Assembly (NCBI RefSeq): GCF_001425235.1
Contig: NZ_LMEA01000012.1
Coordinates: forward strand, 1-64,000
From: Devosia sp. Root413D1
GTDB lineage: Bacteria > Pseudomonadota > Alphaproteobacteria > Rhizobiales > Devosiaceae
Direction of reading: 5' to 3'
Length of the DNA: 64,000 nucleotides
Below are positions 7,646 through 18,912 of this stretch, piece after piece (within the stretch, counting starts at the first letter, position 1; every line of letters begins with the position of its first letter). The notes beneath the pieces are model-generated. The model saw only the letters and a list, made by a program, of their open reading frames with translations. It was not told the DNA's origin and searched no databases. A program made the position numbers and the translations under genes.

Positions 7646-7677
7646 GCGACCCGCGTCGAGGACCCGACGCGGGTCGC
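7646..7677. terminator. Bidirectional terminator-like hairpin
   Basis: Perfect 13-bp GC-rich inverted repeat (GCGACCCGCGTCG / CGACGCGGGTCGC) with a 6-base loop, placed between two convergent genes. No T tract follows on either side, so intrinsic strength is uncertain, but position and symmetry fit a shared transcription end. Confidence 0.65.
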
Positions 7678-7689
7678 TCCAGGCGGAGC

Positions 7690-8979
7690 TTACCAGCCCG
7701 GCAGAGCCAGCTGCTGCGCCTGTTTCTTCACATCCTCATCGTAGAGCGCGGCGCCGTCAGCGGCCGAGCGGATGCCGGAGCCGACTTCCACGGTGATCTG
7801 CGGCAGGTTCGGGCCCTTGACCGGCGAGAGGAACTCCAGCGCCGGCGCCGTTGCCCCATCGGTCTCGAAATAGGGCAAGAGGTCGCTGACCACCGGCGGC
7901 ACGTCGGCCGGGATGCTGCAGCCCTTGACGAGGTACGGTCCGGTCGCGCCGATCGCCGCGGTCTGGGCATCGCACCCGGCAACGCTGGCGACGAACGCGA
8001 CGAAGCGCTTGGCCTCCGCCAGATGCGGGGTGGTCGAGGTGATGTAGAGCCCGTTGGGCATCCAGGTGGTGAGCCCGTTCTTGGTCGCGTCATCGCCCGG
8101 CAAGGCGAAGAAGCCGACATCGTTGACGAGGTCCGGATAGGTCGTGGCGATGGTGCCGACGGTGATCGAGAGCATCGGATATTGCGCGCCCTCGCCTTCG
8201 GCGACCATGCGCAGCCCATCCTCGAAGATGGCCGAGGCGAAATCCTCGTTGAGATAGCCGGCTTTGAACACCTCCTCCTGGCGCTCGAAGCCCTTGAGGG
8301 CGGGAGCAGTGGCGTACTTCGCCTGGTTGGCGGTGTAGCGCTCGGCAAAATCCGGCTCGGCCGCCTGCAGGTTGTAGTAATCGCCGAGCATGAAGAGCTG
8401 CGCCGTCCACGGCGTGCCGAAGGTCTGGATGACCGCGGGGATGCCGGCTGCCTTGAGCTTTTCGTTATTGGCCATGAACTCGGCCCAGGTCTTGGGCACC
8501 GCGAGCCCCAGCTTCTCGAACACCTTGCGGTTGTAGAGCACGCCGCCGCCGAAGGCGGTGCCGATCGGTACGCCGTAGACCCGGCCTCCCTCCGTGACCA
8601 CCGACTTGAATGAATCGAGGATCGCGGCCTGGTACGGCTCGTCGGTCAGGTCGACGAAACGCTCTTTTGGGTTGAGCGCATGAAACAGCGAGCCGGCATT
8701 GTACCAGAGCAGATCCGTCATATCGCCGGTCGACAGGCGGGTCTTGACCAGGTTGTCGCCATCGCCGCCGGTGGGGATCAGCTCCACATCGATATTGATG
8801 TCGGGGTTTGCCGCCTCGAACACCTCGATGAGCTTGTTGGCCGTGGCCACTTCGTTCGGGTTGTTGAAATGGCTCAAGGTCAGGTTCACCGTCTGGGCCG
8901 AGGCCCACCCCGTTACGAGCCCAGTCAGCGCCGTCGCCAGGACAGCGGCGCGCAGATGAATTGCCGTGCGTTTGTTCAC
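7690..8979 (-). CDS. Orphan ABC transporter sugar-binding protein
   Basis: 429 aa, family 1 solute-binding protein. I chose GTG 8979 because GGGAGG lies 7 bases upstream; an upstream in-frame ATG at 9003 would put extra residues before the signal peptide. The signal peptide ends GWASAQTV. The mature protein has characteristic FNNPNEVATANKLIEVFEA and TDLLWYN segments. No permease or ATPase gene is adjacent. The divergent AraC regulator across a 170-bp gap is the likely controller. Confidence 0.87.
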   Translation of the reverse strand: MNKRTAIHLRAAVLATALTGLVTGWASAQTVNLTLSHFNNPNEVATANKLIEVFEAANPDINIDVELIPTGGDGDNLVKTRLSTGDMTDLLWYNAGSLFHALNPKERFVDLTDEPYQAAILDSFKSVVTEGGRVYGVPIGTAFGGGVLYNRKVFEKLGLAVPKTWAEFMANNEKLKAAGIPAVIQTFGTPWTAQLFMLGDYYNLQAAEPDFAERYTANQAKYATAPALKGFERQEEVFKAGYLNEDFASAIFEDGLRMVAEGEGAQYPMLSITVGTIATTYPDLVNDVGFFALPGDDATKNGLTTWMPNGLYITSTTPHLAEAKRFVAFVASVAGCDAQTAAIGATGPYLVKGCSIPADVPPVVSDLLPYFETDGATAPALEFLSPVKGPNLPQITVEVGSGIRSAADGAALYDEDVKKQAQQLALPGW

Positions 8980-9149
8980 TTTCGTTCCTCCCTCAGTTTC
9001 CACCCGTCTCCCGCTGGGCAGTCGGCTAAAGGACCACGGCGCCTCGCCACGCGTCTTGCAGCATTCAGCCGCAAAGCTTGAACGAACCCGCGATTTGCGT
9101 CCAACGAAGGGGCTTGTTGCGCTGCGGCAGGTGCGGCTAGGTTCGTTGA

Positions 9150-10049
9150 ATGAATCCCGGATCGCCGTTTGCGGCGCACTACACTATCGAGCAATCGACC
9201 GTACAGCTCTCCGCCGGCCGGCCCGTCAGGGCGCAGCGGCTGGAGGTGATCGAGGATGTGCCGCCGCACGACCACGCCTACCACGAGATCTGCATCGTCA
9301 CCTCGGGCGGCGCCACACACCGGACCAAAAACGGTCGCGCCCCGTTGGCTCGGGGCGATGTCGTCGTCGTGCCACCCGGCGAAGTGCACGCCTTCGAGCG
9401 GGTCGAGCGGATCGAGGTGATCAACGCCTATTACCTCAGCGAATGGCTGATGGGCGATCTCGGCCTGCTATGGACCGAGCCCGGCGCGGTGCCGCTGTTT
9501 CTCTCGACCACGCTGATGCGAGCGCAGATCGTCGACACCGTGCAGATGCGGCTCGATGCCGCCGATTTCGAGCTCATTGCCGCGGAACTCTCGCAGATCG
9601 AGGCTGAGGGCAACCGTGCTGCACCATCGCCGCTGTTCCTGCGCTGTGCGCTGCAGAAGGCGGTGGCGACCATGGCGAGAGCCTGGATGCGGCACGACCC
9701 GACCTCGGCCACCCTCACGTTCCGGCCCGAGGTGTGGACGGCGATGGAGGCCATCGATCGGGCTGCCGGCGCCGGCACCCCCTACTCGGTGGCCCGCAGC
9801 GCCAAGGCGGCGGGGCTTTCGGTCGACCACTTCTCGGCGCTGTTCCGCGCCTCGACCGGCTATGGGCCGACGGATTTCTTCCAGCGGCGACGCATCCACC
9901 GCTCGTGCACGCTGCTGCTCAACCCGCGCCCCAGCATCACCGAGATCGCCGCCGAGCTCGGCTATTCCGACGCCCCGCATTTCTGCCGGCTGTTCAAGCG
10001 CTACCAGGGCATGACACCCTCGGCGTATCGGACGATTTACAATGTGTGA
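9150..10049 (+). CDS. AraC-family transcriptional regulator with cupin sensor domain
   Basis: 299 aa. The N-terminal half is an AraC-type cupin (PPHDHAYHEICIVTSGGATH near residues 35-54 and VVVPPGEVHAFERV near 72-85). The C-terminal part from about 200 holds two helix-turn-helix motifs, ending in the diagnostic EIAAELGYSDAPHFCRLFKR (near 271-290). It is divergent from the orphan sugar-binding protein and probably activates it in response to a sugar. The effector is unknown. Confidence 0.88.
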   Translation: MNPGSPFAAHYTIEQSTVQLSAGRPVRAQRLEVIEDVPPHDHAYHEICIVTSGGATHRTKNGRAPLARGDVVVVPPGEVHAFERVERIEVINAYYLSEWLMGDLGLLWTEPGAVPLFLSTTLMRAQIVDTVQMRLDAADFELIAAELSQIEAEGNRAAPSPLFLRCALQKAVATMARAWMRHDPTSATLTFRPEVWTAMEAIDRAAGAGTPYSVARSAKAAGLSVDHFSALFRASTGYGPTDFFQRRRIHRSCTLLLNPRPSITEIAAELGYSDAPHFCRLFKRYQGMTPSAYRTIYNV

Positions 10050-10096
10050 GCCGGGTTCTTCACGTTGTTGGCTACAAGCCGCTCCGCAAACTCGGT

Positions 10097-10174
10097 GTCA
10101 TCCCAGCGAAAGCTGGGACCCATTTCACAGCCCGCACCAGGGGAGAGTTGGGTCCCAGCTTTCGCTGGGATGAC
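10097..10174. repeat. Palindromic intergenic repeat, type GTCATCCC, copy A
   Basis: A perfect 26-bp inverted repeat (10097-10122 against 10149-10174) begins GTCATCCCAGCGAAAGCTGG and encloses 26 bases. Related elements with the same design lie at 22349-22432 and 24046-24195. As transcribed RNA it would form a long hairpin downstream of the araC gene. Confidence 0.85.
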
Positions 10175-10256
10175 AGCCGGTGGGGAGGCGATACTGTAGT
10201 CTAGCCCACCCATAAGCGGGCACCAGAGGCGCCCTCCGCGAGTGAGGCGTACCGCT

Positions 10257-10985
10257 CTAGAGCGCACCCGCCTCCCCCAGCAGCCAATCGACCATAGCGT
10301 CCCGCAGCGGCAGCGCCTCGGCAGGATCGAACCGCCGCGGATCGGGACCGAAGATCCCGAACAGCGGGTGCGCGGGGTCATGCCGCTGCGCCCCCATCTC
10401 GTTGCCACCGGGGTCGATGCTGGGCGCTTCGGCCAGTGCCGGCAGCAGGTCGAGGCGCACGCGATCGGGCCACAGCGCACTGAGCAGTGTGGTTTCGAAG
10501 CGGGCGGCATGGTCCGGCGCGAGGGCCAGGCCGGTGGCCATGCTGACCGCCAGCGCCCGAACCCGCATGCCTCCGCCCGAGCCCGCCCATTCGGCCTCCA
10601 GCCCGCGGATCAGCTCGATCTGCTCGCCTGCAAAATGACCGCTGAGGATCACCACGGCGCCAACCTCGAATGCCGCGAGGCGCCGGAGCGTCTGCTGCAG
10701 CAATGGCCGGATCTCATCGGCGCCGGCCATAATCGTCCACGGATAGTCGCCATGCCCGCCGCCGGCGCCATAGTAGAGCGGCGGCAGCACCAGCCCGGCG
10801 CCGCGCTGCGCCGCCGCAAGGCACAGCCCATGCGCGGTGAGCCCGTCGAGACCGACCGGCAGATGCTCGCCGTGCCACTCGTAAGTCCCGAGCGGCAGAT
10901 AGACGAGCGATCGCTGCGCCAGCGCCGCGCGGATTTCGCTCGGCAGCAGCAGCTCGAACTGCACGGAGGCCGGGTCCGCGCTCAT
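10257..10985 (-). CDS. Creatininase-family amidohydrolase
   Basis: 242 aa. Seen: the metal-binding LPLGTYEWHGEHLP motif near residues 30-43, GGGHGDYPWT near 75-84 and LSGHFAGEQ near 113-121. These correspond to the creatininase / MftE-type di-metal site; the usual NGHGGN is altered to SGHFAG. I chose ATG 10985 because it overlaps the TGA of the upstream aldo/keto reductase gene in an ATGA junction. The family hydrolyses cyclic or linear amides. The substrate here is unknown. Confidence 0.8.
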   Translation of the reverse strand: MSADPASVQFELLLPSEIRAALAQRSLVYLPLGTYEWHGEHLPVGLDGLTAHGLCLAAAQRGAGLVLPPLYYGAGGGHGDYPWTIMAGADEIRPLLQQTLRRLAAFEVGAVVILSGHFAGEQIELIRGLEAEWAGSGGGMRVRALAVSMATGLALAPDHAARFETTLLSALWPDRVRLDLLPALAEAPSIDPGGNEMGAQRHDPAHPLFGIFGPDPRRFDPAEALPLRDAMVDWLLGEAGAL

Positions 10986-11956
10986 TGGTAGTAATTCCGC
11001 GGCCAACTATGGGCGGCCAGTTGCGCCAGCAACTCGTCGGGAAACGGCGCGCCATCGGCATAGGCGATGTTGATGTCCACTTCGGCCGGGCTGTGCATCC
11101 CGGGGATGACCGTCGAGACCTCCGGCGCGCTGAGGCTGAAGCGCATCGCGGCCTCGGCCAGGGTCGGGAAATACGGCGCGCAGAGCTGCTTCAGCCGTTC
11201 GACCCGCGCCAGCGTTTCAGCGAAGCGGTCACCACGGAACAGCTGGTGCGGCACCGACCCCGCAGGCCAGCCGGCATAGGTCGCGGCGGTCCAGGTGCCG
11301 GTCAGCGAGCCGGAATCGAGCGGCACCCGGGCGATGTAGGCCGGCGGATGATCCGGCGCAGCGGGAAATAACCGATCCCTCGGCCGCTGCTCGAACAGGT
11401 TGAAGATCACCTGCTGCGAGCTGACGAGACCGAGGCGCGCCAGCGCGATGCCGTCATCGGGCCGGTAATCGCGCAGCGACACCCCGATCTGGTCGAGCTT
11501 GCCCTCGAGCCTGAGGGCATTGAGCGTCTCCAGCCAATCGAGCTCGGTGACGCCATCCGCCACCCAGCAATGAAGCTGCAGCAGGTCGAGGCGCTCGACC
11601 TGCAGACGTTTGAGGGACACTTCGACCGCGGCACGCAGATGCCAGGCGGGGTAGCGACCGCGCATCGGCGGGCGCTCCTCGTCGGGGCTCGGCCAGACGG
11701 TCGGCTGCACCTTGGTCGCCACATAGATCCGGTCCTGCCGCCATTGCCGGACCGCCTGCCCCACCACCGTTTCGGAGCGGCCCTTGCCGTACATCTCGGC
11801 CGTATCGACGAAGTTGATGCCGCGCTCGAAAGCGTGGTGCAGCGTGCGGATCGAATCCGCGTCACTCGCCCCGCCCCAGTCGCCGCCGATCTGCCAGGCG
11901 CCGAAGCCGATTTCGCTGACCTGCCAGCCGGCGCCGCCGAACGCCCGGTAGCGCAT
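10982..11956 (-). CDS. Aldo/keto reductase
   Basis: 324 aa with the NADPH-dependent AKR barrel. The catalytic tetrad is visible: Asp and Tyr in NFVDTAEMYGKGRSE (near 49-63), Lys in YVATKVQP (near 80) and His in LLQLHCW (near 127). It is the middle gene of a minus-strand operon, starting 2 bp after the PhyH stop and sharing an ATGA with the creatininase gene. It probably oxidises or reduces a sugar or aldehyde intermediate of an uncharacterised pathway. Confidence 0.9.
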   Translation of the reverse strand: MRYRAFGGAGWQVSEIGFGAWQIGGDWGGASDADSIRTLHHAFERGINFVDTAEMYGKGRSETVVGQAVRQWRQDRIYVATKVQPTVWPSPDEERPPMRGRYPAWHLRAAVEVSLKRLQVERLDLLQLHCWVADGVTELDWLETLNALRLEGKLDQIGVSLRDYRPDDGIALARLGLVSSQQVIFNLFEQRPRDRLFPAAPDHPPAYIARVPLDSGSLTGTWTAATYAGWPAGSVPHQLFRGDRFAETLARVERLKQLCAPYFPTLAEAAMRFSLSAPEVSTVIPGMHSPAEVDINIAYADGAPFPDELLAQLAAHSWPRNYYQ

Positions 11957-11958
11957 CG

Positions 11959-12756
11959 CTAGCCGACCCGCGGGAACAGCTCGCTATCGAGCAGGTCGCC
12001 GGCCGCAAACCCCTGCTCGTCGGTGACGATATGCGGCTTGCCATCAAAGCGCGTGCCATCGGGCATATAGATGATGGCGAAGGCTTCGCGCGTGCCGTCG
12101 GATTTGTTGGGGCCGGCATAGTGGAAGGTCAGCCCGTTGTGAAAGGTGGCGCTCCCCGCCTTCAGCGGCCGCGGCACCGGCTTCACCGGCCTCAGGTGCG
12201 GGGCATAGTCGAACAGGTCCTGCGGATCACTCAGATCGACGGCCGGCTGCGGGCCCAGCGAATGGGTGCCCTCGACGAAGGCCATGCAGCCATTATGCGT
12301 CGTCGCATCCTTCAGCGCGATCCAGATCGTTGTCTGGTGCCAGCGATCGACATGCGGCCAGTACACCGCATCCTGATGCCAGGGCGTACGGTTGTTGCCC
12401 TTCATCGGCTCCTTGAACAGGGCCTGGTCGTGCCAGAGCCGCATAGGGCGTCCCTCAAGGCGCATCGCGATACGACCGAGCGCGGCGGACAGTGTGAAGC
12501 GGGCAACATCGGGGTGGCGTTGCCAAAGATTCACCTTTTGATTGAAGATCTTCTCATAGGTCGCCTGCGCCCCGCTCCGCGGCCGGTCAGGCGCCTCGTT
12601 GGTCTCTATCGCCACGGCATTCACCACAGCCCCCCGCATCGCATCGAGCACCGGGCCGGTGATCACGTCGTCCAGTTGAATGAACCCGTCCCGGCGATAC
12701 TGATCGATCTGCTCCTGGATGAGCGGGTAGTCGGGAACGCTGAGCGTATCGTGCAC
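11959..12756 (-). CDS. Phytanoyl-CoA dioxygenase (PhyH) family protein
   Basis: 265 aa, Fe(II)/2-oxoglutarate-dependent oxygenase fold. The metal triad is probably His and Asp of PWHQDAVYW and the His in LTFHYAGP. I chose GTG 12756 because GAGGAG lies 6-11 bases upstream; the longer reading from 12882 adds residues without family resemblance. It leads an operon with an aldo/keto reductase and a creatininase-like enzyme, a combination I do not recognise as a named pathway. It probably hydroxylates a small metabolite. Confidence 0.82.
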   Translation of the reverse strand: MHDTLSVPDYPLIQEQIDQYRRDGFIQLDDVITGPVLDAMRGAVVNAVAIETNEAPDRPRSGAQATYEKIFNQKVNLWQRHPDVARFTLSAALGRIAMRLEGRPMRLWHDQALFKEPMKGNNRTPWHQDAVYWPHVDRWHQTTIWIALKDATTHNGCMAFVEGTHSLGPQPAVDLSDPQDLFDYAPHLRPVKPVPRPLKAGSATFHNGLTFHYAGPNKSDGTREAFAIIYMPDGTRFDGKPHIVTDEQGFAAGDLLDSELFPRVG

Positions 12757-12870
12757 GGTGATCTCCTCGGGTCCGGCTCTGTGCCGTGTTGTCTGAGGGG
12801 ATAGTCGCACCGGTGGTGGGTAGTGTCTTGGATCGATCGGAGGCGGGAGTTGAATGAAGCCGGGATAGTA

Positions 12871-12887
12871 GAACTCTCGCACCTCTC
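12871..12887 (+). other. Possible degenerate attachment-site copy
   Basis: GAACTCTCG-C-ACCTCTC repeats 16 bases of the tRNA-Thr gene (17086-17101) in the same orientation, with one inserted base. It lies in the 241-bp gap beyond the far end of the DUF3800/ATPase cassette, so the pair would bracket the cassette. The match covers the variable loop and T-stem side of the tRNA and does not extend to its 3' end, so this may be chance. The rest of the gap 12757-12997 shows no gene. Confidence 0.2.
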
Positions 12888-12997
12888 GGAGAATACTTGA
12901 AACAGAGTGCAGACGTTCGGAATGCTCGATCAGGTGCCACTATCCTCGATGCGGCCAGTAGTCGGCGCGCGGTCTGTCGCCAAATTCTGGCGATGCA

Positions 12998-14089
12998 TCA
13001 ACCGCGGCGATCCTCAGATGACTGAATAATGGCCGCCAGTTGATCCACTACATCAGGACCTTCGAGTTTGCGGGGAGGTATCTGGTCAGGAAATACCAGC
13101 AACGGTGTGATGCCCTCGATCATCACGGCGGAAAGGCCTGCGAACTGTAGCTCGGTGAAGAAGGCATAGTCCGGGTTGTCTCGCGTGACCCCATGCATCT
13201 TCACGCTCAGACCGGCCAGAATGTCGCAGAACTGGACCGAAGCATTGTCCCGAGAATCCACCGGCAATGTCGACAGGACGCGCAGGGGAAAGGGCGCGTC
13301 CGTGCCGTCGCCCAAGATTTGGGATGTCTCGGCGACCTCCGAATTGGTGATGTTCTCCCACATGCGGCGGCTGCGCAGAAACACCGAAGACGCATCGTGA
13401 ACCACTGCGAAGTCGCGACTGCTCCGTTGCCGCCAACGAGAGACCATGGCGATCATAGTGCCGGTGTGAAGCTCATTGCTGGACCGAAAGTTGTCGATGT
13501 CGTTGAAGTGATTGAAGGCCTCGGCACCGGCAGCCATCTGCTCAAGGAATGGGCGCGTTTTCTCACCCGCGCTGTTTGCCATTAGCCGCAACCGGCCCTG
13601 CAACAACCGCAGGGATTGCTGGTTCGGGTCGCGGCTGAACTCCATGTAGATCGCGAGAAGGCGATCCAGCAACTCTGGTGGCTCGGTCAGGGTGAAACCA
13701 AAATACATGTAGTTGCTGTACTTCCAGCAAAAGCCGTCGGCGTAAAAGTCGTATCCGGCATGGGTGATGATTGGCTCGATCAGGAAGTCGGCCATTTTGG
13801 TCAGCACCGCCATCCGCTTCTGGATAATGTAGACGAGGGTCCGATCGCTAAGCTTCGCGGCATGTTCCGCGAACCGCAGCAGGCCCTGCCGGGCATTGGT
13901 GCGCCAGACGTTGGAAAGCTTGTACTCAGCGCCGCGGTAGCTGGGAAAACTGTCGACTAGGATCTCGCTCGCGGCTTCGGGCTCGAGATCCGTGCTAGCG
14001 ATGGCGAACACGGGTTGGGCCGAGTCGAGCAAGTTGTAGCCGGTGAAGCCTGCCTCGTCGAAGTACAGCGTCTGTGGAGCGGCCGGCAT
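12998..14089 (-). CDS. DUF3800 domain protein, predicted RNase H-fold nuclease
   Basis: 363 aa. It opens with the DUF3800 signature YFDEAGFTG (Asp11, Glu12). Further conserved acidic sites are in FAVVHDASSVF near the middle and VQFCDILAGL near residue 282. These carboxylates match the DEDD-like active site predicted for this family. It lies downstream of an SMC-like ATPase (136-bp gap) on the same strand. DUF3800 proteins recur in phage-defence and mobile cassettes; activity here is inferred. Confidence 0.8.
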   Translation of the reverse strand: MPAAPQTLYFDEAGFTGYNLLDSAQPVFAIASTDLEPEAASEILVDSFPSYRGAEYKLSNVWRTNARQGLLRFAEHAAKLSDRTLVYIIQKRMAVLTKMADFLIEPIITHAGYDFYADGFCWKYSNYMYFGFTLTEPPELLDRLLAIYMEFSRDPNQQSLRLLQGRLRLMANSAGEKTRPFLEQMAAGAEAFNHFNDIDNFRSSNELHTGTMIAMVSRWRQRSSRDFAVVHDASSVFLRSRRMWENITNSEVAETSQILGDGTDAPFPLRVLSTLPVDSRDNASVQFCDILAGLSVKMHGVTRDNPDYAFFTELQFAGLSAVMIEGITPLLVFPDQIPPRKLEGPDVVDQLAAIIQSSEDRRG

Positions 14090-14225
14090 GCGGCTGTCCT
14101 ACTTGATCGTGTGGCGTTGTAGCAAGGTGGACAGATCCATCCACACGCCTGGTCTCTAGCGTTTCGTCGCTCGCCCAATTGGCCGAGTAACCCCTGGGTA
14201 CTCATCAGGTGTTGACGCTCACCGT

Positions 14226-16682
14226 CTAGCCCTTTGGTTTGAGTTTGAGGTTGAAATGCACCTCTCCGCAGGTGCAGCGGAGCGCGTCGACTTTGCCCTC
14301 GTAGTCGGTCACATGGAACCACGAATTGCACTCCACGCATTGGAAGCACTTGAGGAGTGTTCTGAAGGCGTCGACCACCGGTTCGAAATCCTTCCTGCCG
14401 AAGTTGGCCCAAGCGTTGTGGTGAACCGCCTGATTCACTGCCCACTGCTCGTCGCCGCTCGCTCCACTAGCTGCTGAGAGCGAGGCCTTGCGGTCCATCG
14501 CCATTCTCTTTGCATCTTCGTTGCCCCAAGACTGAGCGGCGTCGACCGCCTTACCGTAGAGTTCTTTGCCGCGACGGAGAACGGCGGGTAACAGTTCGCC
14601 CAGTTCGTACTTGCCGTCTGCGTGAAAGACAGTTTGCGCGCCGAGTTCGTCCGCAAGCTGCCACGACGCATACTCCATGTGGCGGCGCAGACCTGCCGCG
14701 GCCACGTCCACCTTACCGTGCGCCAACGCGCTCTCAATGTCGTGCCAGATGTCAGTATTGGATTCTACCAAAGGTCCGGTATCGACGCTCCAGTTATAGA
14801 AGGTGAGGGTTGTCTTGGCCGAAACGAGCCCGGCGGTGCTCATCTGTCTCGCCCACAGTCGGTCATGTGTGGTGATGATGAACTGTGTGTTTGGAAAGTG
14901 CGTCTTGAGCAGCTTACAGAACTGCCGGCGGTGGTCGGCATCGACCGACATCACCACGTCGTCGAGCAGAGCGATTGTGAAGTCTGCGCCGTAGAGTCGC
15001 TTCATCAGTGCAAGATAAAGACATACTCCCATGCCATCCTGGTGACCCTCGCTGTGGAATGCTGCGGGCGGGTACATGCCACGTTCATAGAAGTTGACGG
15101 CAAGATCTAAGCTGCCTTCGGTTGGCGTGAGCTTGGCGGTGAACTCAGACTCATCGCCTTCGTTGACCAGTCGGTAATACGTGCTGAAGTCGGCCTGGAT
15201 GTCTGAATAGAGAGTGTTGAGTTCACCTTCCATCGCCGCCACGTAGGCGTCATAGCCGATCTTGGCCGCGACACTTGCCGTTCTCGCCGCCTCTTCTGCT
15301 CGCATCGCTGCGCGGTAATCCTCCAAGCGCAGTTGCGCCGTGGTCAGGAATGTCTGTGCCTCCACAGTTGCGCTCTGATCAGGCTTAGAGTTGATTGCGT
15401 CGCGAAGCGCGGCGATGCGACTGGCGAGTTCGCTTGGCAATCTATACCAGTCGCTGGCGAGCCGATGTTTGAGGCCGAGAAGGCCATCGAAGCGACCCAT
15501 TTCGGCCTTGAACTCGCCGAGTTCCCGTCCCCATGACGCAATGGAATCCATGCATGCGTTGTCACTTTCGCTTCTGGCGAGGCGGTGCACATGGCGCAAA
15601 AGCGCCAGAACGTTATCAACGTAGCCCGCGACTGTAAGCCCGCTCTTGAGCAGAGCCTGTTGGAGCGCACCAGCATCTTGTGACTTCTCCAGCTTGGTTC
15701 GGAGGTGCCCAAGTAAGTGACTTTCGTCCGGCCAAGGGTGATCGCAAAGAGGACATGATGGCCCATCGACCAACTCCAGCCCCTTCTCAACCAGTTCGCG
15801 GCTCTGAAGTGCGGCAAAGAGCTTCGGGTCGTCCTCGAGTCGCGCGAGACCGTTAACAATCGTAGCGCAGTCATGTGAAACCAGACCGGGGAGGGACGCG
15901 ACCGCTTCGGTTACTGCGTCTAATTCGCGGAGCGCCGACGGCTTGTTGAAAGCGGCCAGCTTGTTAGCATCCGTGAGGCCCAAATCGAGGCGCGTTACGG
16001 GCAGAAGCTCATCGAGCGCAGCGAGGCCAAGCACCGCCCGCTTGTCGTTCACGGCTTTCAGCAGATCTACGAGAGCGTTGGTTTCTATTTTTAGGTGACG
16101 CTGAAGTATCCCGCGATTTGATGAAACGCCCTGCCCGGCGATAGCATGCTCTCGCTGCAGCTTGTTTAGTGCGGTGCTTAGAGCTGCGCGGGTTTGGCCT
16201 ATCTCTTCAAGCTTTAGGATCGCCTGAATCTCTTCGGACCGTTTACTTGGCTCGACCAAGACAAAGCGGAGGATATCACGCCGCGCCAGTGTGATTTCCG
16301 GGTGATCGGCGATCTCATCAAGCGCAGCGATGATGTCTGGATCGGTTGGCTCGATTGTCGGCTTGTTCGGTGCCGAAAGCTTGCGCGTGATCGTCGCGGG
16401 CTTGTTGAGCGATGGAATGAAGACCCGGAGGCGCACAAATGCTGCGTCGGGGAAATTCACCTTGTCGACGTGAGGCCCATGCTCGCCAATCGTGAGTCCT
16501 TTGGTGCCACGACCCATCAGACGGCCAATCTGGCCGGTAAGCGCAAACTCGATGGCATCGATCACGCCGCTCTTTCCCGATCCGTTCGGTCCGGTCACAA
16601 CGAAGCTCGCTCTGCCGAAGTCGATGTCGAGCGAATGGATGCCGCGCACTTCCTCGATATGCGCCGCCTCAACCTTAATCAT
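14226..16682 (-). CDS. Rad50/SMC-like AAA ATPase with zinc-binding motifs
   Basis: 818 aa. Walker A is GPNGSGKS at residues 31-38, and a signature-like SEGHQDGMGVCLYLAL segment precedes Walker B TIALLDDVVMSVD near 570-582. A CPLC motif near residue 310, flanked by helical arms, resembles a Rad50 zinc hook. The C-terminus adds a zinc ribbon (CFQCVEC near 777-783 and CTCGEVHF near 802-809). Its start overlaps the stop of a 58-aa gene in an ATGA junction, and DUF3800 follows. The architecture suggests a DNA-sensing or DNA-bridging motor of an accessory defence module. Confidence 0.85.
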   Translation of the reverse strand: MIKVEAAHIEEVRGIHSLDIDFGRASFVVTGPNGSGKSGVIDAIEFALTGQIGRLMGRGTKGLTIGEHGPHVDKVNFPDAAFVRLRVFIPSLNKPATITRKLSAPNKPTIEPTDPDIIAALDEIADHPEITLARRDILRFVLVEPSKRSEEIQAILKLEEIGQTRAALSTALNKLQREHAIAGQGVSSNRGILQRHLKIETNALVDLLKAVNDKRAVLGLAALDELLPVTRLDLGLTDANKLAAFNKPSALRELDAVTEAVASLPGLVSHDCATIVNGLARLEDDPKLFAALQSRELVEKGLELVDGPSCPLCDHPWPDESHLLGHLRTKLEKSQDAGALQQALLKSGLTVAGYVDNVLALLRHVHRLARSESDNACMDSIASWGRELGEFKAEMGRFDGLLGLKHRLASDWYRLPSELASRIAALRDAINSKPDQSATVEAQTFLTTAQLRLEDYRAAMRAEEAARTASVAAKIGYDAYVAAMEGELNTLYSDIQADFSTYYRLVNEGDESEFTAKLTPTEGSLDLAVNFYERGMYPPAAFHSEGHQDGMGVCLYLALMKRLYGADFTIALLDDVVMSVDADHRRQFCKLLKTHFPNTQFIITTHDRLWARQMSTAGLVSAKTTLTFYNWSVDTGPLVESNTDIWHDIESALAHGKVDVAAAGLRRHMEYASWQLADELGAQTVFHADGKYELGELLPAVLRRGKELYGKAVDAAQSWGNEDAKRMAMDRKASLSAASGASGDEQWAVNQAVHHNAWANFGRKDFEPVVDAFRTLLKCFQCVECNSWFHVTDYEGKVDALRCTCGEVHFNLKLKPKG

Positions 16683-16855
16683 TTGACTTCGCCGCCGACG
16701 GGTCTCTTGAAAACGCTCACAAACTCTTCGGCCTTCGGTTTCTTGCCGCGCTCAAGGAGTTGGCGGAGTGCTGCAATCTTCTCGACGTCGAGATCCCCTT
16801 GTTCAGCCAATGTAGAAAGGAATTTCTCTGCGATCTTCTGCTGCAGGTTGGCCAT
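16679..16855 (-). CDS. Small helical protein, first gene of the ATPase/DUF3800 cassette
   Basis: 58 aa, starting MANLQQKIAEKFLSTL and ending KRPVGGEVK. It is charged and predicted helical. The stop TGA overlaps the ATG of the ATPase, which argues strongly for translational coupling, and GGAG precedes the start. Function unknown. As a small partner of an SMC-like ATPase it could be a regulatory subunit or a dimerisation helix (inference). Confidence 0.72.
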   Translation of the reverse strand: MANLQQKIAEKFLSTLAEQGDLDVEKIAALRQLLERGKKPKAEEFVSVFKRPVGGEVK

Positions 16856-17065
16856 AGCTCCGTAGAAGCCGGCCTTTGTACCGTAGCCGAAGCAGACATC
16901 GCAAACTTAACAAGAGCCGATTGGCGCGAAAGCCGTTCCTTCGAAGGAGGCGGAACACGAAGAGCCCCCGGCGTCATGGCCTGCCAAGCTAGCCTTGCGT
17001 TAGCGCGAGCGACAATTCGCAGGTGAAGGTACAACCGACACCTAAGCGCCCATCATGAGGAAAAG

Positions 17066-17140
<75 letters not shown>

Positions 17141-17287
17141 GAACGCATGGGCGTGGGGCGAGGCCCCCGGCGGCGTGGGGCGGTTACTGCCACAGGGCTT
17201 TGGCTGGTGCAAGCGCAAAAAGCTTGCAAACGGGCTACAGCAGCGAACGTGGCTTTGCTGCTAGGGTGAGCGCACAAATCGAGTGAC

Positions 17288-17488
17288 GTGAAGGCAAGGC
17301 TGGACGTGGCTGACGACGCGGCGAAGCGCGAGCAAAGATTGGCCGCAAAGCTTCGGGAGAACCTGAAGCGGCGGAAGGAACAGGCGCGGGCCCGGGCGGC
17401 GGGCACCGGCAAATCTCCACCCGAGACGGAAGCGAACGACACGGCCGATGGGGCCGCGTTGAAGCCGCTTGGTGACTCGGATAGCTAA
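17288..17488 (+). CDS. Small conserved basic protein upstream of murA
   Basis: 66 aa starting at GTG 17288. The core [20 protein letters not shown] followed by EQARAR is strongly basic and helical, with an acidic Thr/Asp-rich tail. Similar short proteins sit just before murA in many alphaproteobacteria, as I recall, which supports a real gene. Function unknown; the composition suggests nucleic-acid or ribosome contact. Confidence 0.6.
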
Positions 17489-17587
17489 GAGTGCTTTCAG
17501 GAAAAGTTGCAGACTTTTCCGGTTCGAAAGCGCGACAAATAGGGATTTGGAGCATTTCGCCGTTTCACGGAAACGGTGAGGTGCTCC
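17488..17587. repeat. Dispersed intergenic repeat, type GAAAAGTTGCAGACTTTTCC, copy A
   Basis: About 100 bp of nested palindromes: GGAAAAGTTGCAGACTTTTCC-like, then a second arm around TTTCGCCGTTTCACGGAAAC. The same element in reverse orientation occurs at 25031-25131. Rhizobiales genomes carry comparable short mosaic elements. It sits between the small basic protein and murA, and the open frame through it is not a murA extension. Confidence 0.8.
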
Positions 17588-17625
17588 AAGCAAGGGGCAG
17601 AACGCTCCGCAGTCGGGAAGACAAC

Positions 17626-18912
17626 ATGGATCGCATTCGTCTGGTGGGTGGCAATGAGCTCAGGGGCGAGATCCCCATCTCGGGCGCCAAGAACGCGGCG
17701 CTGCCGCTGATGATCGCCTCGCTCCTGACTAAAGACCCGCTGGTGCTGGAGAACGTGCCGCGGCTGGCGGACGTCAACCAGCTCGAAAAAATCCTCGAGA
17801 ATCACGGCGTCGATATCGCCGTGCATGGCCGCAAGGCACCGACGCTCGAGGGCCAGCGGATGACGCTGCAGGCCGCCGAGATCGTCGATACCACAGCGCC
17901 CTACGAGCTGGTCTCGACGATGCGGGCGAGCTTCTGGGTGATCGGGCCGCTGCTGGCGCGGGCGCATGAGGCGCGGGTGTCGCTGCCGGGCGGCTGCGCC
18001 ATCGGCACGCGGCCAGTGGACCTGTTCCTCGCGGGGCTGAAGGAACTGGGCGCCGAGATCGAGATCGACGAGGGCTATGTGGTGGCGCGCGCCCCCAAGG
18101 GCGGGTTGCGCGGCGCGCGCGTGGTGTTCCCCAAGGTGACAGTGGGCGCAACGCATGTGCTGCTGATGGCGGCGACGTTGGCCAAGGGCACAACGGTGCT
18201 CGAGAACGCCGCGATGGAGCCCGAGATCAGCGATGTCGCCGAGTGCCTGGTGAAAATGGGCGCGAAGATTACCGGCATCGGCACGCGCACGCTCACCATC
18301 GAGGGCGTCGATGAGCTGCATGGGGCAACCCATGCCGTGGTGGCGGACCGGATCGAGACCGGCACTTATGCCATGGCGGCGGCCATGACCGGGGGCGACG
18401 TGCTGCTGAAGCATGCGCGGGCCGAGCACCTGCAGGCAGCGCTCGATACGCTGGCGCTCGCAGGGGTAGAGATCAGCTCGGAAGCGGACGGCATTCGGGT
18501 CCGACGCAACGGCAACGGCATCCAGGCGGTGCATGCCGAGACGCAGCCGTTCCCGGGGTTCCCGACGGACCTGCAGGCGCAGTTCATGGCGCTGATGACC
18601 ATGGCCAACGGCACCTCGCAGATCCGCGAGACGATTTTTGAGAACCGCTACATGCATGTGGCCGAGCTCGCCCGCTTCGGCGCCGACATCAAGGTCGATG
18701 GCCAGGTGGCGACCGTGACCGGCGTGCCGCAGCTGAAAGGCGCGCAGGTGATGGCGACCGACCTTCGCGCCTCGGTGTCGCTGGTGATCGCCGGGCTCGC
18801 GGCGCGCGGCGAGACGGTGGTCAACCGGATCTACCACCTCGATCGCGGCTTCGAGCGGCTCGAGGACAAGCTGAGCGCGGTTGGCGCGGAGATTGAGCGG
18901 GTTACGGGGTGA
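17626..18912 (+). CDS. murA: UDP-N-acetylglucosamine 1-carboxyvinyltransferase
   Basis: 428 aa, normal for MurA, the first committed enzyme of peptidoglycan synthesis in the cytoplasm. It transfers enolpyruvate from PEP to UDP-GlcNAc. Seen: [16 protein letters not shown] near residue 19, the active-site Cys124 in [13 protein letters not shown] (the fosfomycin target) and the C-terminal [12 protein letters not shown] chose ATG 17626, since the upstream in-frame stretch from 17491 is repeat sequence. Identification is secure. Confidence 0.97.

What the first reader, a model, noticed from the sequence alone, without database searches (positions are those of the whole stretch)
12998..16855. Three-gene SMC-like ATPase / DUF3800 cassette at tRNA-Thr: candidate defence system
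A 58-aa helical protein, an 818-aa Rad50-like ATPase with a CPLC hook-like motif plus a C-terminal zinc ribbon, and a DUF3800 nuclease-like protein form one minus-strand unit directly on the 3' side of tRNA-Thr. The first two overlap by ATGA. Sensor ATPase plus small partner plus nuclease is the typical logic of anti-phage modules, and codon use looks less GC-biased than the neighbours. I could not match it confidently to a named system.
Basis: partly seen in the sequence, partly recalled or inferred. Interest (0 to 1): 0.78.

Follow-up and report, generated by a model that had tools for sequence, protein, structure and literature searches.

The report
Small protein paired with Rad50-like ATPase
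The core here is a mobile two-gene unit, a tiny helical protein encoded just ahead of a Rad50-like ATPase whose tail may be an RNA-cutting domain; relatives recur in bacteria and salt-loving archaea, some beside phage-defence genes, so it is probably an uncatalogued defence module, whereas the third gene, DUF3800, looks like a fellow passenger.

Summary
The three genes are real and lie where stated, in a 4.2-kb, 58% GC insert at the 3' end of tRNA-Thr. The closest relative with both flanks lacks the insert and carries other, defence-like cargo there. The three-gene reading fails: no DUF3800 relative in 36 other loci with the ATPase family. The two-gene unit is firm: in 27 of 28 family loci (window included) an intact 53-77 aa ORF overlaps the ATPase start, 23 times by 4 nt. 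The unit has no fixed neighbours; one copy sits inside a BREX-5 operon, distant relatives in type III R-M and DrmD-helicase operons. The ATPase has an SMC/Rad50 head, a CPxC hook, and a C-terminal helical domain with zinc ribbon. In that domain only R666-x3-E670, H754 and one Cys are invariant (20 of 20), echoing the R-x3-E...H triad of the anticodon nucleases PrrC and RloC. HEPN homology is suggestive, not significant. Best reading: a RloC-like, DNA-sensing, RNA-cleaving suicide switch with a tiny partner. It misses the AAA_13 (RloC-type) cut-off, and the small protein hits no PADLOC model. New variant of a known kind.

The parts
12867..17055 (.). Low-GC accessory insert at the 3' end of tRNA-Thr; carries all three genes
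   Evidence: In relative L125 most of window 7647-12866 and 17056-18407 aligns (93-98%), 12867-17055 has no match and another 6.4-kb stretch lies there; GC 0.579 vs 0.644. No flanking repeat found; no integrase among the ORFs scanned
16679..16855 (-). 58-aa protein (predicted helical from sequence), gene overlaps the ATPase gene
   Evidence: an equivalent small ORF overlaps the ATPase start in 27 of 28 family loci, window included; BLASTP similarity to P0001 in 10 other loci; no PADLOC or PHROG match, no Pfam/NCBIfam match above cut-off
14226..16682 (-). 818-aa SMC/Rad50-like ABC ATPase with CPxC hook, C-terminal helical (HEPN-like) domain and zinc ribbon
16569..16592 (-). P-loop GPNGSGKS, residues 31-38
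   Evidence: G31, P32, N33, G34, G36, K37, S38 invariant in 23 of 23
15744..15755 (-). CPLC zinc-hook-like motif, residues 310-313
   Evidence: C310, P311, C313 invariant in 23 of 23
15039..15053 (-). ABC signature-like SEGHQ, residues 544-548
   Evidence: S544, E545, G546 invariant in 23 of 23
14940..14975 (-). Walker B / D-loop IALLDDVVMSVD, residues 570-581; DD where Rad50/SMC have DE (recalled)
   Evidence: D574, D575, S579, D581 invariant in 23 of 23
14349..14750 (-). C-terminal all-helical domain (residues 645-778) with R666-x3-E670 and N750/H754
   Evidence: R666, E670, H754 invariant in 20 of 20 C-termini; tail modelled alone at pLDDT 82.9, pTM 0.79
14268..14339 (-). C-terminal zinc ribbon, Cys 782/785/803/805
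   Evidence: near-invariant cysteines, C805 invariant in 20 of 20; strands in the model
12998..14089 (-). DUF3800 protein (YFDEAG motif), fellow passenger of the insert, not part of the conserved unit
   Evidence: phrog_12991 1.8e-27; no match in 36 other distinct loci of the ATPase family
17066..17140 (-). tRNA-Thr (GGU), variable insertion spot
   Evidence: other DNA on its 3' side in the related genomes fetched

Best explanation
A two-gene, horizontally mobile anti-invader module. The ATPase is predicted to dimerise through its CPxC hook and to bind DNA with its SMC/Rad50-like heads, so that an abnormal DNA state of an infection (ends, hairpins, or failure of a resident R-M/BREX system) changes the head state. 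That would release the C-terminal HEPN-like domain, which uses R666/E670/H754 to cleave RNA, possibly tRNA as PrrC and RloC do, and stops translation before phage or plasmid spreads. The 58-aa protein, encoded upstream and overlapping in every intact pair seen, is predicted to be a dedicated subunit that holds the heads or the HEPN-like domain in the resting state or tunes DNA recognition. Shown here: the pair, the gene overlap and mobility, the motifs, the accessory and partly defence-linked location. Inferred: DNA sensing, RNase activity, tRNA as target, and the role of the small protein.
For: (1) Small ORF overlapping the ATPase start in 27 of 28 loci, window included, down to 22% ATPase identity, in bacteria and archaea. 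(2) Invariant SMC/Rad50 motifs plus CPxC in 23 of 23; fold search ranks Rad50, SMC heads and chains of a Lamassu LmuACB structure first. (3) In the C-terminal domain only R666, E670, H754 and C805 are invariant in 20 of 20 sequences (19 family, 1 distant; 19-65% identity). Mutating any of R692, E696, H737 of Geobacillus RloC abolished its nuclease, and PrrC's R320/E324/H356 is the matching putative triad (PMC2610378, passages read). (4) The full-length family profile matches a profile of AAA_13 proteins (RloC-type, recalled assignment) at 99.45% probability over 688 columns, mainly through the head. (5) Three distant relatives (L043, L045, L046) read RN-x4-H at the same place, within the HEPN motif Rx4-6H (PMC3710099, passages read); 2 of 10 distant tails give sub-threshold Pfam HEPN or DUF4145 hits (0.064, 0.053); in the PDB fold search two of the four listed hits with probability above 0.6 are 1o3u (named HEPN) and 2q00 (HEPN by recall), the other two designed bundles. 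(6) Context: between pglX and pglZ of BREX-5; distant relatives behind type III Mod-Res and a DrmD-like helicase; others beside AbiE, DarT/RES/TIR, HmaC/DUF499. (7) Recent transfer: 98.9-99.8% DNA identity over 7.9 kb between a Rhizobium locus and Paracoccus and Rhizobiales loci.
Against: No single test of HEPN homology is significant: C-terminal profile against AAA_13 tails 2.3% probability, no relevant PDB sequence hit, no fold hit with E < 0.001; 1o3u and 2q00 rank 5 and 8 by E-value (0.62, 0.72), behind two designed bundles, OspC and vinculin; nothing in viral models; no HEPN family in the list for 20 tails at E <= 1. The E-to-H spacing is 80-87 in the family against 36-52 in RloC, and the Arg of the Rx4-6H motif is missing in the family. 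Two haloarchaeal members with intact small genes (L019, L020) lack the whole C-terminal domain. L005 keeps an intact ATPase although its small gene has an in-frame stop (or a sequencing error), which speaks against an essential antitoxin. Homology of all the small proteins is not proven; beyond the BLASTP hits it rests on size, position and a loose alignment. Defence linkage is moderate: 6 of 11 against 1 of 11 matched controls (p 0.03), or 3 of 11 if RelBE pairs count (p 0.19).
Confidence: 0.5

Rival explanations
1. A reduced Lamassu / ABC-3C-type system: the ATPase is a LmuB-like sensor, the 58-aa protein stands for LmuC, and the effector is fused to the ATPase's tail or supplied by the neighbourhood (here DUF3800).
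For: Best PADLOC hit is LmuB, 5.6e-19 over residues 4-610, and 23 of 23 members match LmuB models at 1e-5; chains of Lamassu LmuACB structures (LmuB by length, inferred) rank 4, 6, 9 and 13 in the fold search; many LmuB have a CPxCG-like hook (PMC10586767, passages read).
Against: mad3 also matches 23 of 23, so the LmuB hit is not specific; no PADLOC model at all hits the small or the DUF3800 protein (that PADLOC holds LmuC and LmuA models is recalled); no third gene is conserved; LmuB generally has a Walker B Glu-to-Gln change whereas this family has Asp.
Confidence: 0.2
2. The C-terminal domain is a non-catalytic docking or nucleic-acid-binding module; the pair is a DNA-scanning or regulatory component (like DndD-DndE) that serves whatever modification or restriction enzymes lie nearby.
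For: A coevolving ABC ATPase plus small partner is the core of Dnd systems (PMC10853773, passages read); two members lack the tail; several members sit in methylase-containing loci; the HEPN match is not significant.
Against: Several members have no modification gene annotated within 6 kb; no PADLOC hit for the small protein; the few invariant tail residues are R, E, H, the make-up of a metal-free RNase site.
Confidence: 0.2
3. A plasmid/island maintenance toxin-antitoxin module, small protein antitoxin, ATPase toxin, without a phage-specific role.
For: Small-first order with overlapping genes; copies on plasmids, 7 of 31 records typed conjugative; broken ATPase genes in L024 (frameshifted) and L040 (IS630-like insertion).
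Against: Small gene interrupted with intact ATPase in L005; placement inside BREX and R-M operons; chromosomal-type flanks at the window.
Confidence: 0.15
4. A true three-gene system with DUF3800 as the nuclease, as first read.
For: All three share strand, GC and insert.
Against: No relative in 36 other distinct loci; the two closest plasmid DUF3800 relatives lie elsewhere.
Confidence: 0.05

Closest known systems
RloC (and PrrC), ABC ATPase-HEPN anticodon nucleases (Pfam AAA_13, recalled assignment)
   Same: N-terminal ABC head; in RloC split by coiled coil with CxxC hook; SEG signature and DDxxxSxD Walker B as seen in the AAA_13 proteins fetched; C-terminal R-x3-E...H; sometimes R-M linked (8 of 72 in PMC2610378)
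   Different: Below the AAA_13 cut-off (13.6 vs 36 bits); E-to-H spacing 80-87 instead of 36-52; extra zinc ribbon; overlapping small partner gene, not mentioned for RloC in the passages read
Lamassu / ABC-3C (LmuB-LmuC-LmuA, DdmABC)
   Same: Rad50-like sensor ATPase, often with hook, and a small operon partner; best PADLOC model
   Different: No PADLOC match for the small or third protein, no conserved third gene, effector-like domain fused to the ATPase, Walker B Asp
DndD/CxC ATPase-DndE core of Dnd and Pbe systems
   Same: Rad50-like ATPase in a fixed pair with a small protein
   Different: Partner is 53-77 aa; DndE has two ribbon-helix-helix domains and no DndE hit was seen; no phosphorothioation genes annotated at the loci read
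MADS MAD3 ATPase
   Same: PADLOC mad3 6.2e-16
   Different: Far below NCBIfam's MAD3 cut-off (14.3 vs 420 bits); flanks of the window pair are metabolic genes by Pfam

Membership tests
RloC | Reaches the family model (Pfam AAA_13) | tested here: not met
   13.6 bits, cut-off 36
RloC | CxxC hook between the two halves of an ABC head | tested here: met
   C310/C313 in 23 of 23
RloC | C-terminal R-X3-E-X36-52-H | tested here: not met
   R-x3-E and H invariant, but E-to-H spacing 80-87 in the family, 63-87 with distant relatives
RloC | tRNA cleavage in the anticodon loop | not testable with these tools
   needs an assay
HEPN superfamily | Significant profile or fold match | tested here: inconclusive
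   1o3u (HEPN) and 2q00 (HEPN by recall) at probability 0.66, E 0.62 and 0.72; profile tests not significant
HEPN superfamily | Rx4-6H motif | tested here: not met
   NxxxH in the family without the Arg; RN-x4-H only in distant L043, L045, L046
Lamassu | LmuB-type ATPase | tested here: inconclusive
   best model LmuB 5.6e-19, but many Rad50-like families also hit
Lamassu | LmuC partner | tested here: not met
   0 PADLOC families for P0001 at E <= 1; presence of LmuC models in that library is recalled
Lamassu | LmuA effector gene | tested here: not met
   0 PADLOC families for P0003; no conserved third gene
Dnd/Pbe core | DndE partner | tested here: not met
   no DndE hit for P0001 in PADLOC, Pfam or NCBIfam
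Septu / retron PtuA | PtuA ATPase model | tested here: not met
   NCBIfam PtuA 41.8 bits, cut-off 500; PADLOC PtuA stretches lie in the head ends
MADS | MAD3 ATPase model | tested here: not met
   NCBIfam 14.3 bits, cut-off 420

The most novel reading that the evidence does not exclude
An uncatalogued family of two-gene defence modules shared by Alphaproteobacteria and haloarchaea: a sub-80-aa subunit gates a Rad50-like sensor fused to a divergent HEPN RNase, and serves as a back-up that fires when BREX, type III or DrmD-type restriction is beaten; distant relatives with the same small-first layout would make it the founder of a larger class.
Probability: 0.4. Interest if true: 0.68.

Novelty: new variant of a known kind. 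Interest (0 to 1): 0.5.

Why it matters
If right, it extends the PrrC/RloC logic (restriction backed by a translation-stopping RNase) to a separate Rad50-like family with a constant micro-subunit, present in archaea and found inside BREX, with distant relatives inside type III R-M. It would give a compact two-gene system in which to ask how an SMC/Rad50 head turns a DNA signal into RNase firing, and how a 58-aa subunit keeps it silent. It also shows how easily a hitchhiking neighbour (DUF3800) is mistaken for a system component.

Tried and rejected
Three-gene system: rejected by the census. Known PADLOC, NCBIfam, Pfam or PHROG identity for the small protein: none above cut-off. Phage records: no match at 1e-5. 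Viral contigs: no relative with the single protein; with the alignment 44 loci, of which L052 is a full-length family member and L053 a distant one, the rest weaker, mostly head matches. att repeat of the insert: none found. C-terminal domain against AAA_13 (RloC-type) tails by profile: not significant; the global alignment places R-x3-E on the RloC-type R-x3-E/D, the full-length one places H754 on the RloC-type His but not R/E. Of the seven AAA_13 proteins fetched five were whole and had CxxC, three passed the strict R-x3-E-x36-52-H pattern, others read R-x3-D. Krishnan et al. 2020 on ABC ATPase conflict systems (PMC7544218), the paper most likely to have touched this family, is not held, so novelty is claimed only against the literature searches, of which I saw listings, and passages of five papers (outline in 84).

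Selection told: the plasmid search gave 31 records, 17 were fetched. The matched control used 11 of these 17 (left out: L017, L019, L020, L024, L025, L026), and its list of defence words was settled after the test loci had been seen; TerB and exonuclease VII genes were not counted on either side. A4 (20 tails) leaves out L019 and L020 (no domain), L024 (frameshifted), near-duplicates L007, L008, L025, and L038-L040, whose tails show the same residues. A6 (23 tails) drops L017 and L022, adds L039 and four distant tails (L041, L049, L073, L093) taken after the motif had been seen, and leaves out L042 (R-x3-D), L043/L045/L046 (RN-x4-H) and L044/L048 (unclear); its 23 of 23 is therefore partly chosen, and the count to trust is the 20 of 20 of A4.
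Full report
WHAT IS THERE. Pfam sees SMC_N and AAA_23 in the 818-aa protein and DUF3800 in the 363-aa one; the 58-aa protein matches no model above cut-off.

THE INSERT. GC falls to 0.579 in 12867-17055 against 0.644 for the rest of the window (profile). Flanking genes are ordinary: PhyH, aldo/keto reductase, creatininase and a solute-binding protein on one side, EPSP synthase and histidinol dehydrogenase on the other. In genome G003, 93-98% identical in the flanks, window 7647-12866 (with one short gap) and 17056-18407 are both present, the 4.2 kb between is missing, and 6.4 kb of other DNA lies there. That DNA encodes an AbiJ-like protein (PADLOC 4.5e-21) and a helicase of a PADLOC family (9.2e-199). 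In the other five relatives fetched only the tRNA-Thr/aroA side aligns. In G014 an ORF beside the tRNA reads like a phage integrase and another like Vsr (my reading of the translations, no family search). So tRNA-Thr is a variable spot; no att repeat was found for this insert. Among 101 relatives 4 match the ATPase, two of them over its full length (the window's own genome and G074); none of the 18 other species of the genus does. In wider draws 8 of 385 genomes of the class and 3 of 299 of the phylum match at E <= 1e-20, own genome included, several only over part of the protein.

THE CONSERVED UNIT IS A PAIR. Two of the ATPase genes are broken (L024 frameshifted, L040 interrupted) and two end early (L019, L020). 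In 27 of the 28 an intact ORF of 53-77 aa overlaps the ATPase start, by 4 nt in 23 and by 11-20 nt in the four haloarchaeal loci L014, L016, L017 and L018. BLASTP shows 10 of these small proteins to be similar to P0001; for the others the case is size, position and a loose alignment (in which the L002 row had wrong coordinates). A profile of that alignment finds its own rows by construction and, beyond them, L024, L038, L040 and the right ORF of L002, but not L039, whose ORF I took by position. The 28th locus, L005, has an in-frame stop in the small gene. Of nine distant ATPase relatives seven have a 61-96 aa ORF directly upstream or overlapping; short ORFs are common and these were not tested for chance. 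One is at a contig edge (L046) and one lacks the N-terminal part (L053). The DUF3800 protein has no relative in 37 entries (28 family, of which L002 and L047 are one locus, and 9 distant; 36 distinct loci, window not included) by tblastn at 0.01; flanks are short in some, and L042 and L046 end inside or at the ATPase. Its two nearest plasmid relatives lie next to a Fic gene and among hypotheticals.

WHERE THE PAIR LIVES. On plasmids of Rhizobium, Mesorhizobium, Bradyrhizobium, Phaeobacter, Roseibium, Sphingomonas, haloarchaea and others; 7 of 31 records are typed conjugative, 2 mobilizable, 22 non-mobilizable. L006, L007 and L008 (Rhizobium, Paracoccus, a Rhizobiales bacterium) share 7.9 kb at 98.9-99.8% identity. 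In Halorhabdus tiamatea the pair is between pglX and pglZ of a BREX-5 locus. Other neighbours: DUF262 and HipA, N-6 methylase, AbiE and an abortive-infection protein, DarT, RES and TIR, HmaC/DUF499, a type ISP/IIG enzyme at L026, a DruM2-like methylase and a helicase at L005. Distant relatives: Mod-Res-small-ATPase in one type III R-M operon (L049; REase_III 1.5e-184 and MTase_III) and DrmD-like helicase-small-ATPase (L043, 3.1e-205; the helicase of L045 is similar by sequence, not scanned). As a control I took stretches of equal length elsewhere on 11 of the same plasmids: defence genes near the pair in 6 of 11 (L010, L014, L018, L021, L022, L023), in controls 1 of 11 (a restriction endonuclease), or 3 of 11 if RelBE toxin-antitoxin genes count; Fisher one-sided 0.03 and 0.19. 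One control stretch held a second copy of the same ATPase (L141). The linkage is real in kind and moderate in number.

ANATOMY OF THE ATPASE. In 23 aligned members (22-68% identity to P0002) the P-loop, CPxC, SEG signature, DDVxxSxD Walker B/D-loop and H606 are invariant. AlphaFold2 gives a medium-confidence model (pLDDT 75.3, pTM 0.50, 8 sequences); Foldseek ranks Rad50, an SMC head and a Lamassu LmuACB chain first. The tail, modelled alone, is better (pLDDT 82.9, pTM 0.79): seven helices, then a small beta ribbon. Across 20 tails (19 family and L053) at 19-65% identity only R666, E670, H754 and C805 are invariant. A second alignment with four further distant tails that show the motif has R, E, H at 23 of 23 and N750 at 22 of 23. 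RloC's motif is R-X3-E-X36-52-H, and mutating any of R692, E696, H737 of Geobacillus RloC abolished its anticodon nuclease (PMC2610378, passages); these nuclease domains are HEPN domains (PMC3710099, passages). In our family the E-to-H distance is 80-87. The general HEPN motif Rx4-6H is not kept, but appears as RN-x4-H in three distant relatives.

HOW FAR THE HEPN CLAIM GOES. Full-length profile comparison with AAA_13 proteins (seven fetched, partial ones filtered out by the script): 99.45% over 688 columns, driven by the head; tail alone: not significant. PDB by profile: no relevant hit. Fold search of the tail: nothing below E 0.001; of the 50 hits listed four have probability above 0.6, two designed bundles and the natural proteins 1o3u (named HEPN) and 2q00 (HEPN by recall), which rank 5 and 8 by E-value, behind OspC and vinculin too; viral models: nothing. 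Pfam on the 20 tails: no HEPN family listed at E <= 1; on ten distant tails: HEPN 0.064 for L073 and DUF4145 0.053 for L042, both below cut-off. I therefore call it HEPN-like and treat catalysis as inferred. The HEPN paper describes R-M-linked and Pgl-linked RloC-family proteins as possible suicide effectors, and the BREX survey finds HEPN and other RNases as back-up effectors (PMC12839542, passages and outline). This fits the placement inside BREX-5; the passages that I saw do not describe this pair.

MECHANISM. Small gene first, overlapping, then a sensor-ATPase with fused effector: this suggests that the small protein must be made with, or just before, the ATPase. I favour a resting complex in which it stabilises the silent state of the heads or tail. 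Against a strict antitoxin stands L005; against an obligatory tail stand L019 and L020, which end near residue 640 and still have the small gene. These two points are the main unexplained facts.

KNOWN OR NEW. By model tests it is not RloC (AAA_13), Septu/PtuA or MADS MAD3, and the components that would make it Lamassu or Dnd/Pbe were not found. It works most like RloC by anatomy. I found no description of the pair in the searches listed under Tried and rejected, but an important survey was not readable. Hence: new variant of a known kind, interest 0.5.

Noticed in passing
window 17488-17590: A 103-nt double hairpin (z -7.3) between tRNA-Thr and the EPSP synthase gene; at least 40 copies in the own genome (scoring limit reached), the first ~51 nt up to 98% identical. 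In relative L125 the alignment skips exactly this stretch, in L126-L128 it also breaks there, in L123 and L124 it runs through. Looks like a dispersed palindromic repeat of the kind known in Rhizobiales (recalled).
   Followed up: partly
L125:7897-14351: Alternative cargo at the same tRNA-Thr in the closest relative: AbiJ-like protein, PADLOC helicase, and a 402-aa protein with no PADLOC match.
   Followed up: partly
L016 and L141: The Halorientalis marina plasmid carries two copies of the ATPase annotated with the same accession, about 113 kb apart.
   Followed up: no
L040:6835-7800: An IS630-like transposase (recalled from its sequence) interrupts an ATPase homologue; L024 is frameshifted near its end. 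Inactivation may hint at a cost of the gene.
   Followed up: no
L019, L020: Natrialbaceae members with the small gene but an ATPase that ends near residue 640, without the tail; L020 is followed by a queuosine precursor transporter, a tRNA-modification link that may be chance.
   Followed up: no
L006:12573-14652: A GMT-wHTH protein (TcmP-like, recalled) and a DUF5131 gene travel with the pair in L006-L008; a DUF5131-like ORF (by eye) is near L026.
   Followed up: no
window 12998-14089: The DUF3800 protein matches phage family phrog_12991 over nearly its full length (1.8e-27), so it may come from a phage or prophage.
   Followed up: no
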